DNA from: Myxococcales bacterium
GTDB taxonomy: Bacteria > Myxococcota_A > Polyangia > Polyangiales > Polyangiaceae
DNA length: 64,000 nt
Reading direction: 5' to 3'
Assembly (NCBI GenBank): GCA_903642325.1
Contig: CAHJWM010000029.1
Coordinates: 1-64,000 of the forward strand
This document shows, in pieces, positions 6,325 to 11,116 of the stretch (position 1 is its first letter; every line of letters begins with the position of its first letter). The notes under the pieces were generated by a model, which was not told the DNA's origin, made no database searches, and saw only the letters and a program-made list of their open reading frames with translations. Position numbers and translations under genes: made by a program.

Positions 6325-7974
6325 TCATTCCATGATCGGCGAGGCCTTGAGCGCCGCTTTGCCTTCCTTGACGTAGACACTGAATTTAACGCGCTTCGCA
6401 CCGTGGCGGGTCAGAAGCTCGTCGTTTTTCTTTTTGAGCGTTTGCTCGAATTTTTCGAAGCTGAAGTTGTCAGTATTCTCACCGCACTGATGCTTCAGGC
6501 TGACGAAGTCTTGGAAGACGGCTTGCCACTCCTCCTCCTCGGTCGGCTGGTAGCCCACGGGCGTCGTCACCACCCGCGCCGGAGGCGACGGCATGCGGCG
6601 GGCCACGGAGTCGCCTCTCGATCCTTCGACGAGGGTCGAGTCGAGGAGCGCAGGGTTGCCAGCCAAGCCAGGCGCGCGGGGGTTGTTTGGATTCAGCGCG
6701 GGCGACACGCGGGGGATGGGAGCCGAGGGCGGCGACCGCATGCTCGACGGGTCGGTCGGAAAACTGAACGCGCTCATTTGCGGTTGGTCCGGGATATCAC
6801 CCAAGACCTGTTTCATATCGGCGGGGCCACGCCGCGGGCCGCCCCCTTTTGCCATCACTTGATCCATGCCGTCATTCAGGTCGGCGGCGATCTTACGAAA
6901 CACCCCGTGAAAGCGGCTTGCCTGCAGCTGGTCGATCTGACCCTTCGCCAACCGCTCGGCCTCGCTCTTGAACGCGCCGAGCGGGCGAGTATGCTCGAAT
7001 ACCGTAAATAGCAGGCCGACGGCGGCGGCAACGACGGCGATCGCGACGGCCAGCGGCAAGTTGGCCTGCTGTTTGTCTTTATCGTCCGCGTTCTTGAAAA
7101 AGCCGAAAAGCCCGTCCACCGCAACGGGCAGGCGCGCTACAGCGAAGCCCCCGCCCAGCTGCCAGGCTTCGCCTGGCAAACGCGAGTATTGCACGCCCAA
7201 GAGCCCGCCAATCGTACGCACTTTGCTACGGCCCTTGTCCATGTAGTCGGTGTCTGCCTCGAGCGTCGCCATGTCTCCGACGATCTGATCGAGTTGGCTC
7301 GTGGCAAAGCCCTCGGGTGATCCGGACGCAGCGCGCTCGCCATTGACGTAAAAGGCGATGGCCGCGCCAGTGCGCGAGGAAAGCTCACGCGCAAATCGAT
7401 CATCGACGATGCGCGCGCCAATGATTGCGCCTGCTGGTAGCGAGCCCATATCGTACTCGACCGGCCGCGCGACGACGCGGTAGACGCGATCCAGCACCAA
7501 CGTATCGTCTCGCACGTAGCCTCGCAAAGCGTCGGCCACCACCGGGTAACCGCCGAGCTCGAAATCGCTCATGCCGCTGGCCTGCTCGTAACCCAGGTAT
7601 GCGACCACGCGGCCCGCTTGATCGACGGCGAACACCGCGTCGAATTGATCTTCTTTAGGAATGCTCGCGTTCACCTTTTTGAGCGCGCTCAGCAGCCTAT
7701 CTTTGGCGTCTTCCGGGACCTTGGCCTCGGCATCGCTCGACTTCTGCAAGTACTTCGCAATATCGGGGTCCACCCCGAATTGGATGAGGCGGCCCGAGCG
7801 CTGCCGGGCGTCATCTCGCAAGTACCAAGCCACGACCTGCGAGTCCGAGGACAGCGCCTCACCCATCGCTCGCGCGCCGGCACGGTTATACATACTGGTC
7901 GCTAGGGACAAGACGAAGATCGACAGACCCAAAAACAGGCCGAGGAGCACGTACCAAAAGCGCGAAAGGACCAT
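6325..7974 (-). CDS. membrane sensor-like protein with periplasmic domain and conserved C-terminal domain, MXAN_5187-like
   Basis: The 549-residue protein begins with a membrane segment (FWYVLLGLFLGLSIFVLSLA). A periplasmic region of ~270 residues follows that resembles the double-Cache/PAS-like sensor of chemoreceptors and kinases (DAVFAVDQAGRVVAYLGYEQ, YRVVARPVEYD). A second membrane segment (LPLAVAIAVVAAAVGLLFTVF) and a HAMP-like stretch (RPLGAFKSEAERLAKGQID) come next. The cytoplasmic part has no kinase or methyl-accepting motifs. It is a Pro-rich linker plus a C-terminal ~75-residue module ending KVKFS..VKEGKAALKAS. From memory this resembles myxobacterial proteins of the MXAN_5187 type; that is not verified. 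The start is 1 base after the stop of the upstream exported-protein gene, so the two are coupled. Confidence 0.75.
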   Translation of the reverse strand: MVLSRFWYVLLGLFLGLSIFVLSLATSMYNRAGARAMGEALSSDSQVVAWYLRDDARQRSGRLIQFGVDPDIAKYLQKSSDAEAKVPEDAKDRLLSALKKVNASIPKEDQFDAVFAVDQAGRVVAYLGYEQASGMSDFELGGYPVVADALRGYVRDDTLVLDRVYRVVARPVEYDMGSLPAGAIIGARIVDDRFARELSSRTGAAIAFYVNGERAASGSPEGFATSQLDQIVGDMATLEADTDYMDKGRSKVRTIGGLLGVQYSRLPGEAWQLGGGFAVARLPVAVDGLFGFFKNADDKDKQQANLPLAVAIAVVAAAVGLLFTVFEHTRPLGAFKSEAERLAKGQIDQLQASRFHGVFRKIAADLNDGMDQVMAKGGGPRRGPADMKQVLGDIPDQPQMSAFSFPTDPSSMRSPPSAPIPRVSPALNPNNPRAPGLAGNPALLDSTLVEGSRGDSVARRMPSPPARVVTTPVGYQPTEEEEWQAVFQDFVSLKHQCGENTDNFSFEKFEQTLKKKNDELLTRHGAKRVKFSVYVKEGKAALKASPIME

Positions 7975-7975
7975 G

Positions 7976-8758
7976 CTACTTCACGCTCTCTTCGACTTTA
8001 TCACCCGCCAGGGGCGCGCCGCCCTCGTTGACCTTGATGGGCAGCTTGAGCTCGATGTCCTTGGCCTCGACCTTCACCGGCATCGGAGGCCCGACCTTCT
8101 TGCCGGCGAAATAGGCCTGCAATGCGTATTCACCTGGTTCTTGGATCGCGATCGAGAATTCGCCCTTCATCGACGGGTATGCGACCTGAGCCACGTTCGG
8201 CTCGGCAACGATCCACATCCGCAGGCTGGGGGCTGCCTCGTCGCGGATCTCGAACACGCCCGCGTCGGGCACTGACCAGTCTCGCGTGGCTCCCGGGCCC
8301 GTTTCGTTTGCCGCAAACGTCTTGATGCCCACGCCATACAGCTTGTGTTTGAAGGGGTCGGTGTTCTGGAACGTGAGGCGCGTACCCGGGGTGACCACGA
8401 TCGTGACCGGCGTGGTGCGTCCTCCGCCAACGCGGATCAGCACTGGGGGCTGAGCCCTTTGCGGTGCTGCGGCGATCGCGGCCAAACACAGCTCTTTGGG
8501 GATGTGCGGGAACGGGCGTCGGAACTCGGCGCGGACGGTGGGAACGGGCTCGCGGAAGGAATACCCGCGGTTCTTCGGATCTTTAGCTTCGGCCCAAACC
8601 GGGTTTTGGAGGGCGCGGAAGCCCTCGAAGTGGCCCTTGACGCGCGCCGCGTCCGCGGTGCTGGCATGCGACAGCCAACTCGTAGCGACAAGCGCAGCTC
8701 CAAGGCCGCGCCAACCAGCCGTGCGTGAAAACCCCGCGGGGGTAAAACGAGCTTTCAT
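7976..8758 (-). CDS. exported protein with cupredoxin-like/beta-sandwich domain, function unknown
   Basis: The protein of about 260 residues has a signal peptide (GLGAALVATSWLSHASTADA). The mature part contains a stretch resembling a plastocyanin-like fold (VTIVVTPGTRLTFQNTDPFK, then HKLYGVG), although a full set of copper ligands is not obvious. A second segment (FSIAIQEPGEYALQAYFAGK) looks like a carboxypeptidase-regulatory or fibronectin-type strand set. The ATG at 8758 follows GAGGCGG and is preferred; the frame is open 50 codons further upstream without a signal-peptide character. It is the first gene of a two-gene unit with the membrane sensor-like protein 1 base downstream, which suggests a sensing or structural partnership in the periplasm. 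Confidence 0.7.
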   Translation of the reverse strand: MKARFTPAGFSRTAGWRGLGAALVATSWLSHASTADAARVKGHFEGFRALQNPVWAEAKDPKNRGYSFREPVPTVRAEFRRPFPHIPKELCLAAIAAAPQRAQPPVLIRVGGGRTTPVTIVVTPGTRLTFQNTDPFKHKLYGVGIKTFAANETGPGATRDWSVPDAGVFEIRDEAAPSLRMWIVAEPNVAQVAYPSMKGEFSIAIQEPGEYALQAYFAGKKVGPPMPVKVEAKDIELKLPIKVNEGGAPLAGDKVEESVK

Positions 8759-9304
8759 TGCCGCCTCACGGTAATCCAGCGCGCGCGACAACGGAAGAGC
8801 TGAGTCATGCGTACCGGCGCCGCCGCCCGGCGCGCCTCCGTGCCCACGATTCCCGTTCGATTTGCGCACAAAAGGCGAATGGGCCGGCTGTTTAGCCGAC
8901 CCATTCATAGGCTCCTGACCACGTGAGTCGCGAGGCGTTTGAGTACTCCGAACCCCTAGCTTAGCTAGGTGGGAAACTCTTATTTCGCGGCTTCCGGCTT
9001 CCCGGTGAGGTTTTCCGGGCCTAGCTCTCCACCACGAACTCGTCTCCCGATTCAGAATGCTTGTAAGGGATTCGTTAGTACTGCCTCCCGGGCTCTGCAG
9101 AGGGAGCCACTCATTATCCTATGGATGGCGACCTTCTTGTCAACGCGGGCGCCGGGTGAACTTGCAGATTTTTCAAACATTCCATAAAGTTATGCGGTCG
9201 CTGAAAGGTCCCCGCGGGCCGCGCGAGCGCCGAGGATCGGCGCGCGGGCCGACCCTTGACAGCGGAGCCTAGCCAGCGGAGCACGAGTTACCGAAAACTG
9301 GGCC
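8759..9304. other. divergent intergenic region (546 bases)
   Basis: It separates the exported-protein gene (minus) from the PglZ-like gene (plus) and should carry both promoters. It holds a short perfect inverted repeat at 8955-8969 and a TTGACA at 9256-9261 with no clear -10 partner. Short frames inside (for example 8969-9187) have no protein-like features. I see no RNA gene. Confidence 0.5.
8955..8969. repeat. short inverted repeat, possible operator
   Basis: CCTAGC-TTA-GCTAGG is a perfect 6-base inverted repeat with a 3-base spacer, 186 bases before the minus-strand gene and 335 before the plus-strand gene. Short palindromes of this size can be regulator sites, but they also occur by chance. 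Confidence 0.3.
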
Positions 9305-11116
9305 GTGAGGCGGAATCTCATTCACCTTCCGGCCATGAACTTTGCTGAGATCCCCGCGGAAGTGGATGGCTTTGGCTCGGGCGAGGTCGGCCTCGTCGGT
9401 CCAGAGGTGCTCCGCGAGCTACTGCGTTCCGCCGACGACGATGGTTATCTATCCATTGTGCTCGGCCCGCCGGGCCCCGGTCAGCGCGGCGAGTTGGCGC
9501 TGGTGATCTCAGAGGCCATCGACAGTGCGCTCGAGCAACGCGGGGCATGTCCGCCCGGCATTGGCGCAGCGGCTGACCTGGGCTCGTCCCTCAGCGATCA
9601 ATTGTACCGCGCGCGTTTGGTGGAGCTACGCGGGCTCGCATTGGCGGTACCCATGCTCGAGGGCATCGCAAACCTGGCGGGCGCACTGGACGCGGAGGAC
9701 AGCGCGGTGTTGCGCTGGTGGATGGCGGCCACGCGCGAGCGACCTGTGCGGCTGTACATAGACGCGTGCAATCGCTACGCGGGCGTGTACGACCGACCAA
9801 CACCGCTTCAAGACTTACTCCAGCGGAGGCCGAGCCAGAGCCCAGCGCCCGAGCTTGCGCCAGAGGTGAGCGCAAGCGTGGACGCCATGGAGCTCTCCGC
9901 TCAACCGCCGAGCGTCGCGCCACGCGAGAAGCTCGAGGGGCTCGATGCGGGCGATATTTGGGCGGACGAGAGCTCGAGTTACGCTTTGGCGGCAGATAGG
10001 GAAGCAGCGCCAGCGCCGACCGTCGCTCCAGATGGGGGACGACGCGGCGACGCGACAAGTCGCGCCGGCTTCGAGAGCGACCTGGCGGGCGTTCTCGCTC
10101 CTGCGGCGGCTTCTGCCGAGGCCACCGCGGTGACCATCGAGCTCCAGGTCGAAATCGAAGTGCTGGCCGCAGCAAACGATGCGCCCGCCGAAACGAGCGA
10201 CGATGAGACGGCACATTGCCCCGACGTGGAGCCGCAAGCCGCCACGTTCGCGCATACTCCGCTTTTCCCGAACGCCGACACCGAATGGCGCACATGGATG
10301 CACGAGCTGGAAGCAGCACGCGGGCCGAAACCGCTCGGAGTCGTCGAGCGCATGTTCGTCTCGAGCTACGTGCCGCTGTGCGACGCCTTCGCGCGCGGCA
10401 TCGCGGGGGCCGAGGCGAAAAAGACCCTTGAGGCCTGGTCCCAAAGCTTCGAGCAGAGTTATAAGGAGGCGTTCGACGCGCTGCGCGTGCGCGGAAAGCG
10501 TCCAACCATGGTGCTCGATGTGCCCGAGCTTTCGCTCCGTATGGGCCGCTTGCATGGCGCGCGCTCGGTGCAACTAGTGCTGGTAGACGGCTTGCGCTTC
10601 GATCTCGGTTTGCGCGTCGAGCAACGGTTGCGCACGCTGCTCGGGCAAAGCGCCGCGCTCACCGAGCGGTTGTTGCTCTGGTCCGCGCTACCCGCGACGA
10701 CGGCGGTCCAGCTCGAGCTGATCGGGCGGGGCGCGGAGGCCCTGCGGGAGTTCACCGGACATGCCGAATCGGAGGTGCCCGTCGCCCGCGGTCGCATGGC
10801 GACTACCCTGCGCCGTATCAAGGCGGGTCACCGCGAGCTACTCAAGCTCGATGTAGTAGAGTCACGCGTCACCGAGCCCGAAGTCGGTACCGAGACCAGC
10901 CGCCTCGATGACTTGGCGGACGACACGGCCCACGCGCTCGGCTCCTACATGAAACGCTTGCCCGCGCGCACCCTGGTCATGATCTTCGGCGATCACGGAT
11001 TCGTGCTCGAGCGCTTGGGCGAGAATGGCAGCACCACGCGCGCCCGCCATGGTGGCGCGTCACCGGAGGAGGTGCTGGTGCCCGCGTATGCCTGGCTAGT
11101 GGGCGGCGTGCATTGA
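9305..11116 (+). CDS. orphan PglZ-domain protein (alkaline phosphatase superfamily) with degenerate P-loop N-terminus
   Basis: In this 603-residue protein (numbered from GTG 9305), residues ~420-603 look like a PglZ domain. The metal Asp428 is in LVLVDGLRFD, a likely nucleophile is Thr465/Thr466 in WSALPATTAV, Asp563-His564 are in MIFGDHGF, and His582 is in RARHGGASPEEVLVP. All core metal and nucleophile positions seem kept, so activity is possible. Residues ~48-62 read YLSIVLGPPGPGQRG, which is a Walker A-like loop in which the Lys-Ser/Thr is replaced by Gln-Arg. Residues ~190-300 are low-complexity linker. PglZ proteins are part of BREX/Pgl phage defence, but no other such gene is here. An ATG at 9335 is an alternative start. 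It is convergent with the sigma-54 activator gene. Confidence 0.7.
   Translation: MRRNLIHLPAMNFAEIPAEVDGFGSGEVGLVGPEVLRELLRSADDDGYLSIVLGPPGPGQRGELALVISEAIDSALEQRGACPPGIGAAADLGSSLSDQLYRARLVELRGLALAVPMLEGIANLAGALDAEDSAVLRWWMAATRERPVRLYIDACNRYAGVYDRPTPLQDLLQRRPSQSPAPELAPEVSASVDAMELSAQPPSVAPREKLEGLDAGDIWADESSSYALAADREAAPAPTVAPDGGRRGDATSRAGFESDLAGVLAPAAASAEATAVTIELQVEIEVLAAANDAPAETSDDETAHCPDVEPQAATFAHTPLFPNADTEWRTWMHELEAARGPKPLGVVERMFVSSYVPLCDAFARGIAGAEAKKTLEAWSQSFEQSYKEAFDALRVRGKRPTMVLDVPELSLRMGRLHGARSVQLVLVDGLRFDLGLRVEQRLRTLLGQSAALTERLLLWSALPATTAVQLELIGRGAEALREFTGHAESEVPVARGRMATTLRRIKAGHRELLKLDVVESRVTEPEVGTETSRLDDLADDTAHALGSYMKRLPARTLVMIFGDHGFVLERLGENGSTTRARHGGASPEEVLVPAYAWLVGGVH

What the first reader, a model, noticed from the sequence alone, without database searches (positions are those of the whole stretch)
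9305..11116. Orphan PglZ-type protein with intact metal site but a degenerate P-loop
PglZ proteins belong to phage-defence systems (BREX/Pgl). Here the domain keeps the Asp, Thr, Asp-His and His positions, but no other defence gene is in the window. The N-terminus contains a Walker A-like loop with Lys-Ser/Thr changed to Gln-Arg. This could be a regulatory or housekeeping branch of the PglZ fold or a lone defence effector.
Basis: partly seen in the sequence, partly recalled or inferred. Interest (0 to 1): 0.6.

Follow-up and report, generated by a model that had tools for sequence, protein, structure and literature searches.

The report
Cap-less PglZ-fold protein of Polyangiaceae
This gene encodes a protein that joins a dead ATPase-like domain to a stripped-down version of the metal enzyme fold used by phage-defence PglZ proteins, but it sits as an ordinary inherited chromosomal gene in one group of myxobacteria, so it is more likely a regulator than a defence weapon.

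Summary
The ORF is real; its start is probably ATG 9335, not GTG 9305 (593 aa). The C-terminal half is PglZ-like: the AlphaFold model matches PorX PglZ at Z 13.4, far above other phosphatases, although Pfam PglZ does not detect it. Asp418, Thr456 and Asp553-His554 are kept. The last His (572) is present here but Gln or Ser in most homologues. The PglZ cap region is missing: 17 residues from Asp-His to the last ligand, against 77 in canonical PglZ. The 'Walker A-like' loop is not conserved and follows beta-strand 2, not strand 1; the N-terminal domain still looks ORC/STAND-like, without Walker motifs. The gene is in 53 of 60 genomes of its family, in shared gene order in part of it. Its genome has no BrxB, BrxL or canonical PglZ, only a broken BrxC piece. 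Best reading: a clade-fixed, PorX-like regulator in which an inactive STAND-like domain replaces the receiver and controls a weakened or nicking-type metal phosphodiesterase. A distant branch of the same order has lost the active site, so a pseudoenzyme role is a serious rival. Activity is inferred, not shown. New variant of a known kind.

The parts
9335..11116 (+). Coding sequence, probable true start ATG 9335, 593 aa: STAND-like domain, disordered linker, helical region, cap-less PglZ/alkaline-phosphatase-fold domain
   Evidence: Homologue starts align at this Met and the upstream element keeps about 30 nt to it in most relatives; intact frames in relatives
9290..9304 (+). Conserved upstream DNA element ACCGAAAACTGGGCC, 30 nt before the ATG
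   Evidence: 20 of 26 family members (window included) match AAACTGGGCC at 8/10 or better at a near-constant gap; diverged variants at the same gap elsewhere; the 11-mer is not enriched in the genome
9380..9829 (+). N-terminal domain, residues 16-165, ORC/Cdc6/STAND-like fold without Walker A or B motifs
   Evidence: AlphaFold model pLDDT 85.5, pTM 0.81; VIA-align best Cdc6 Z 8.1, human ORC subunit 7.9, TnsC 7.6, RdrA 7.1
9398..9403 (+). Position that corresponds to the Walker A loop (between strand 1 and helix 1); only two residues, Gly-Pro
   Evidence: Secondary structure with the ORC/Cdc6 alignment ranges; location of Walker A in those proteins is from memory
9464..9487 (+).
   Evidence: Alignments; strand order
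9830..10264 (+). Long acidic/Ala/Pro-rich linker, predicted disordered, length varies between relatives; carries a conserved M[ED]LSExPPxV-like motif
   Evidence: pLDDT about 30; alignment
10268..10552 (+). Helical region before the catalytic domain, matches the PorX helical bundle
   Evidence: Model residues 301/312-590 align to PorX 119/132-518
10556..11113 (+). PglZ-like (alkaline phosphatase superfamily) domain without the cap subdomain
   Evidence: PorX Z 13.4, BREX PglZ model 9zn5 Z 8.9; spacing T-D 50 vs 85, DH-H 17 vs 77
10586..10588 (+). Asp418, metal ligand (PorX Asp237)
   Evidence: D in 39 of 40 homologues; PorX ligands from PMC11320123
10700..10702 (+). Thr456, nucleophile and ligand (PorX Thr271)
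   Evidence: T in 35, S in 5 of 40
10850..10852 (+). Asp506, other metal site (PorX Asp360); the PorX His364 position is Ala/Ser here, with Glu509 nearby
   Evidence: D in 39 of 40; position 510 is A/S/G/T; E509 in 34 of 40
10991..10996 (+). Asp553-His554, metal ligands (PorX Asp414-His415)
   Evidence: Both in 40 of 40
11048..11050 (+). His572, last ligand (PorX His499); not conserved in the family
   Evidence: Q 21, S 7, H 5 of 40

Best explanation
A vertically inherited Polyangiales protein built like PorX, with a different input. An N-terminal ORC/STAND-like domain that has lost its nucleotide-binding motifs acts as a sensor or binding platform. A long flexible linker and a helical bundle connect it to a cap-less PglZ domain. 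That domain keeps the ligands of one metal site (Asp418, Thr456, Asp553, His554) and has a weakened second site (Asp506 kept, His364 position lost, last His usually Gln or Ser). It most likely hydrolyses a phosphodiester (nucleotide signal, oligonucleotide or nucleic acid strand) when the N-terminal domain permits, as a chromosomal regulator rather than phage defence. Shown: architecture, conservation, synteny, missing cap, missing partners. Inferred: activity, substrate, coupling and physiological role.
For: PglZ fold: PorX Z 13.4 over about 250 residues against 6.8 for the best phosphatase outside PglZ; hhalign to canonical PglZ prob 96.8, E 2e-10. One metal site conserved at 88-100%, matched to published PorX ligands. 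ORC/STAND-like N-domain. Present in 53 of 60 genomes of its family and 5 of 5 of a second family. Shared gene order TPR-UDG-TrxB-MXAN_5187-cupredoxin-like-[gene]-FHA/sigma54-GpsA-LepB in part of the family. Divergence tracks neighbours: Mantel r 0.85 (MXAN_5187), 0.81 (cupredoxin-like), 0.59 (FHA). Canonical PglZ is sporadic in the same clade. BREX PglZ H741A, a mutant in the same last ligand, nicks more and linearises less (PMC12205998).
Against: No activity, ligand or phenotype is known. The f6 branch has lost nearly all ligands (D418T, T456V, D506S/T, H554V), so catalysis is not kept everywhere. Confidence of the whole model is moderate (pLDDT 63.5, pTM 0.42). N-domain structural matches are middling (Z 7-8) and Foldseek gave none below E 0.001. 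A single-contig genome of the family lacks the gene (G027). Divergence did not track TrxB or UDG.
Confidence: 0.5

Rival explanations
1. Pseudoenzyme: the PglZ-like domain no longer catalyses and serves as a binding or dimerisation scaffold, with the N-terminal STAND-like domain as partner-binding module.
For: One metal site is eroded in most members and the cap is missing; the f6 branch has lost nearly all ligands while keeping the domain. PorX function in vivo depends only partly on catalysis (PMC11320123).
Against: Asp418, Thr/Ser456, Asp506, Asp553 and His554 are kept in 39-40 of 40 homologues outside f6, hard to explain without selection on a metal site.
Confidence: 0.27
2. Stand-alone anti-phage effector: the STAND-like domain senses a phage component and releases a PglZ nuclease that nicks DNA.
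For: Type-4 BREX PglZ often carries an N-terminal inactive STAND domain, and BrxB is an inactive STAND NTPase that binds PglZ (PMC12839542, PMC12205998); N-domain matches include RdrA of RADAR.
Against: Near-universal, syntenic and diverging with its neighbours, not in an island; no defence genes around it; no BrxB, BrxL or canonical PglZ in the genome.
Confidence: 0.13
3. Leftover of an ancestral BREX locus that was retained and repurposed.
For: PglZ homology; a broken BrxC fragment exists elsewhere in the same genome.
Against: That fragment lies on another contig. The family is spread over three families of the order, has its own shared gene order in one of them and coexists with canonical PglZ in several genomes. 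The N-domain shows no profile similarity to BrxB or Type-4 PglZ.
Confidence: 0.1

Closest known systems
PorX (type IX secretion response regulator, PDB 7pv7, 8tfm)
   Same: Helical bundle followed by PglZ domain; Thr/Asp/Asp-His ligands
   Different: PorX has a CheY-like receiver, a cap subdomain and a complete second zinc site; here an ORC/STAND-like domain, no cap, eroded second site
Type-4 BREX PglZ with N-terminal inactive STAND domain (PMC12839542)
   Same: Inactive STAND-like domain at the N-terminus and a PglZ catalytic domain in one chain
   Different: No profile similarity of the N-domain, NCBIfam score 17.6 against cut-off 140, no cap, not in a defence locus
Type-1 BREX PglZ (NF033450; Acinetobacter 9zn5; E. 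fergusonii, PMC12205998)
   Same: PglZ fold, weak HMM hit E 1.5e-4, structural match Z 8.9
   Different: BREX PglZ keeps the last His and the cap region, and works with BrxC, BrxB, PglX and BrxL; BrxB and BrxL are absent from this genome and BrxC is only a fragment
BrxB and other ORC-Cdc6/STAND-type P-loop proteins
   Same: Predicted fold of residues 16-165
   Different: No Walker A or B; fused to PglZ; no detectable sequence similarity to BrxB

Membership tests
PglZ domain (Pfam PF08665) | Profile match above the curated cut-off | tested here: not met
   No Pfam PglZ hit for the window protein; one f8 relative passes narrowly at 26.7 vs 25
PglZ domain (Pfam PF08665) | PglZ-type alkaline phosphatase fold | tested here: met
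   On a predicted model: PorX chains are the top matches, Z 12.5-13.4; Foldseek E 6e-6
PglZ domain (Pfam PF08665) | Ligands of the Thr/Asp/Asp-His metal site | tested here: met
   ligand list from PMC11320123
PglZ domain (Pfam PF08665) | Ligands of the second site (PorX Asp360, His364, His499) | tested here: not met
   Asp kept; His364 position is A/S/G/T; last His in only 5 of 40, window included
PglZ domain (Pfam PF08665) | Cap region between Asp-His and the last His | tested here: not met
   17 residues vs 77 in 17 canonical PglZ
BREX system | Partner genes (BrxC, BrxB, BrxL, PglX) nearby or in the genome | tested here: not met
   BrxB and BrxL absent, only a broken BrxC fragment on another contig; PglX was not searched
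BREX Type-4 PglZ | NCBIfam NF033445 above cut-off | tested here: not met
   17.6 vs 140 bits
BREX Type-4 PglZ | N-terminal inactive STAND domain | tested here: inconclusive
   Fold agrees; profile comparison negative but weak in power, only two Type-4 sequences
PorX | Helical bundle plus PglZ | tested here: met
   Model 301-590 aligns to PorX 119-517
PorX | N-terminal CheY-like receiver | tested here: inconclusive
   No receiver hit in Pfam at E 10; the structural rows listed are ORC/Cdc6/TnsC/RdrA, none a receiver
Active STAND/AAA+ ATPase | Walker A GxxxxGK[ST] | tested here: not met
   Absent in the window protein and in the aligned relatives
Metal-dependent phosphodiesterase or nuclease | Catalytic activity | not testable with these tools
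   Needs purified protein

The most novel reading that the evidence does not exclude
A clade-fixed nucleotide- or nucleic-acid-responsive signalling protein of Polyangiales: an inactive STAND-like sensor drives a minimal, cap-less PglZ phosphodiesterase, showing that the PglZ effector of BREX also exists as a housekeeping regulator outside Bacteroidota PorX.
Probability: 0.3. Interest if true: 0.6.

Novelty: new variant of a known kind. Interest (0 to 1): 0.42.

Why it matters
PglZ is the nuclease effector of BREX, and how BrxB-like inactive ATPase domains act on it is an open question. A single-chain, inherited version with the cap removed and one metal site eroded offers a minimal natural test case, and a branch that has lost the active site offers the control. 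It also warns that a PglZ-like hit is not proof of phage defence.

Tried and rejected
Degenerate Walker A at GPPGPGQR: rejected, not conserved and at the wrong position. The upstream element as a general promoter of this genome: rejected, the 11-mer occurs 4 times against 6 for the reversed control. N-domain as BrxB or Type-4 PglZ N-domain by profile: hhalign probabilities under 1%, low power. Receiver-like N-domain as in PorX: no such match listed. Literature on PglZ in myxobacteria: nothing relevant. A first frame-finding script picked antisense frames in some GC-rich loci; redone with tblastn. TrxB and UDG distances did not correlate, possibly because tblastn kept partial or paralogous matches; not followed up.

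Full report
What was checked. The ORF at 9305-11116 (+) is open and has intact homologues. The window lies in a 5.8 Mb genome, G000, contig C29; its closest named relatives are Polyangiaceae metagenome-assembled genomes. Relatives begin at a Met aligned with ATG 9335, so the protein is probably 593 aa; residue numbers below count from that Met.

The PglZ half. Pfam PglZ does not detect the window protein, and the NCBIfam and PADLOC PglZ models hit weakly. Stronger methods agree on PglZ: the family profile against 20 canonical PglZ from the same order gives probability 96.8, E 2e-10; Foldseek ranks seven PorX chains first; VIA-align gives PorX Z 13.4, a BREX PglZ 8.9, and other phosphatases 6.8 or less. 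An f8 relative just passes Pfam's cut-off.

The metal site. PorX binds two zincs: Thr271, Asp237, Asp414, His415 on one side and Asp360, His364, His499 on the other (PMC11320123, PMC10951265). Across 40 homologues the first set is kept: Asp418 39/40, Thr456 35/40 (Ser in the rest), Asp553 40/40, His554 40/40. Of the second set only Asp506 is kept (39/40); the His364 position is Ala, Ser, Gly or Thr; the last His is His in 5, Gln in 21 and Ser in 7. The window protein is one of the five with His. Glu509, three residues after Asp506, is kept in 34 and could stand in as a ligand (inference). In E. fergusonii PglZ the mutant of the last His (H741A) keeps reduced activity and shows more nicking and less linearisation, while the Thr mutant is dead (PMC12205998). 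By analogy most members of this family may be natural variants without that ligand; this is inference.

The missing cap. Between Asp-His and the last ligand there are 17 residues (median, 40 homologues) against 77 in 17 canonical PglZ; between Thr and the next Asp 50 against 85. This probably explains why Pfam fails.

The N-terminal half. The GPPGPGQR loop is not conserved (EPPRPALR, EAPGPGHR, EPLRPADR) and no aligned relative has Lys-Ser/Thr there. A model of residues 16-170 is confident (pLDDT 85.5, pTM 0.81), and its best structural matches are Cdc6 (Z 8.1), ORC subunits, TnsC and RdrA. These Z values are middling and Foldseek alone gave nothing below E 0.001, so the STAND-like assignment is likely but not proven. 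Inactive STAND domains are a recurrent partner of PglZ: BrxB in Type 1 and an N-terminal fusion in Type-4 PglZ (PMC12839542). No profile similarity to either was found here, with few sequences.

A telling outgroup. In family f6 the homologues (L057-L059, about 30% identical) have the same two-part layout (hhalign C-part probability 99.4, N-part 62 with E 7.5e-5) but D418T, T456V, D506S/T and H554V. That branch is a pseudoenzyme by sequence.

Distribution and context. The gene is in 53 of 60 genomes of its family, 5 of 5 of f8, some of f6, and in no other family of the order that was sampled. A single-contig genome, G027, lacks it and G015 shows only a weak broken trace, so it is dispensable. 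In 16 loci compared, the order TPR, uracil-DNA glycosylase, TrxB, MXAN_5187-family, cupredoxin-like, this gene, FHA/sigma-54 activator, GpsA, lipoprotein, LepB is largely shared; other loci of the family and the f8 and f6 loci differ. Protein distances track MXAN_5187 (Mantel r 0.85), the cupredoxin-like protein (0.81) and the FHA activator (0.59), but not TrxB or UDG. Canonical PglZ is sporadic in the same order, and several genomes hold both. G000 has no canonical PglZ, BrxB or BrxL and one broken BrxC fragment.

Verdict. An inherited, PorX-like two-part protein with an inactive STAND-like input domain and a cap-less PglZ output domain. Regulation by phosphodiester cleavage is the most likely role (0.5), a pure scaffold next (0.27), lone defence (0.13) and repurposed BREX remnant (0.1) least supported. 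It is a new variant of a known fold and architecture, not a new kind of system.

Noticed in passing
window 9290-9304 (+): DNA element CGNCGAAAACTGGGCC (variants such as CGCCGAAAATTCGCCC) sits about 29-33 nt before the ATG in most relatives, while the 11-mer is not enriched in the genome. Possible gene-specific promoter element or operator.
   Followed up: partly
L128 (G000:C125) 992-1470: Broken N-terminal fragment of a BrxC-like ATPase with a Walker A motif, on a short contig: a BREX relic in the same genome.
   Followed up: partly
L057:8578-10353, L058:7910-9748, L059:8402-10186: Homologues in family f6 that lost nearly all metal ligands but keep both domains; they sit beside a formyltransferase-like gene.
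   Followed up: partly
window about 9860-9925: Short motif M[ED]LSExPPxV conserved inside an otherwise disordered, fast-changing linker, perhaps a docking site.
   Followed up: no
window 11090-11113: C-terminal end WLVGGVH with a terminal His kept in 32 of 40 homologues; whether it lies near the metal site is unknown.
   Followed up: no
window 6325-8908 (-): MXAN_5187-family sensor-like protein and a cupredoxin-like protein, divergently transcribed and co-varying with this gene; a functional link is possible.
   Followed up: partly
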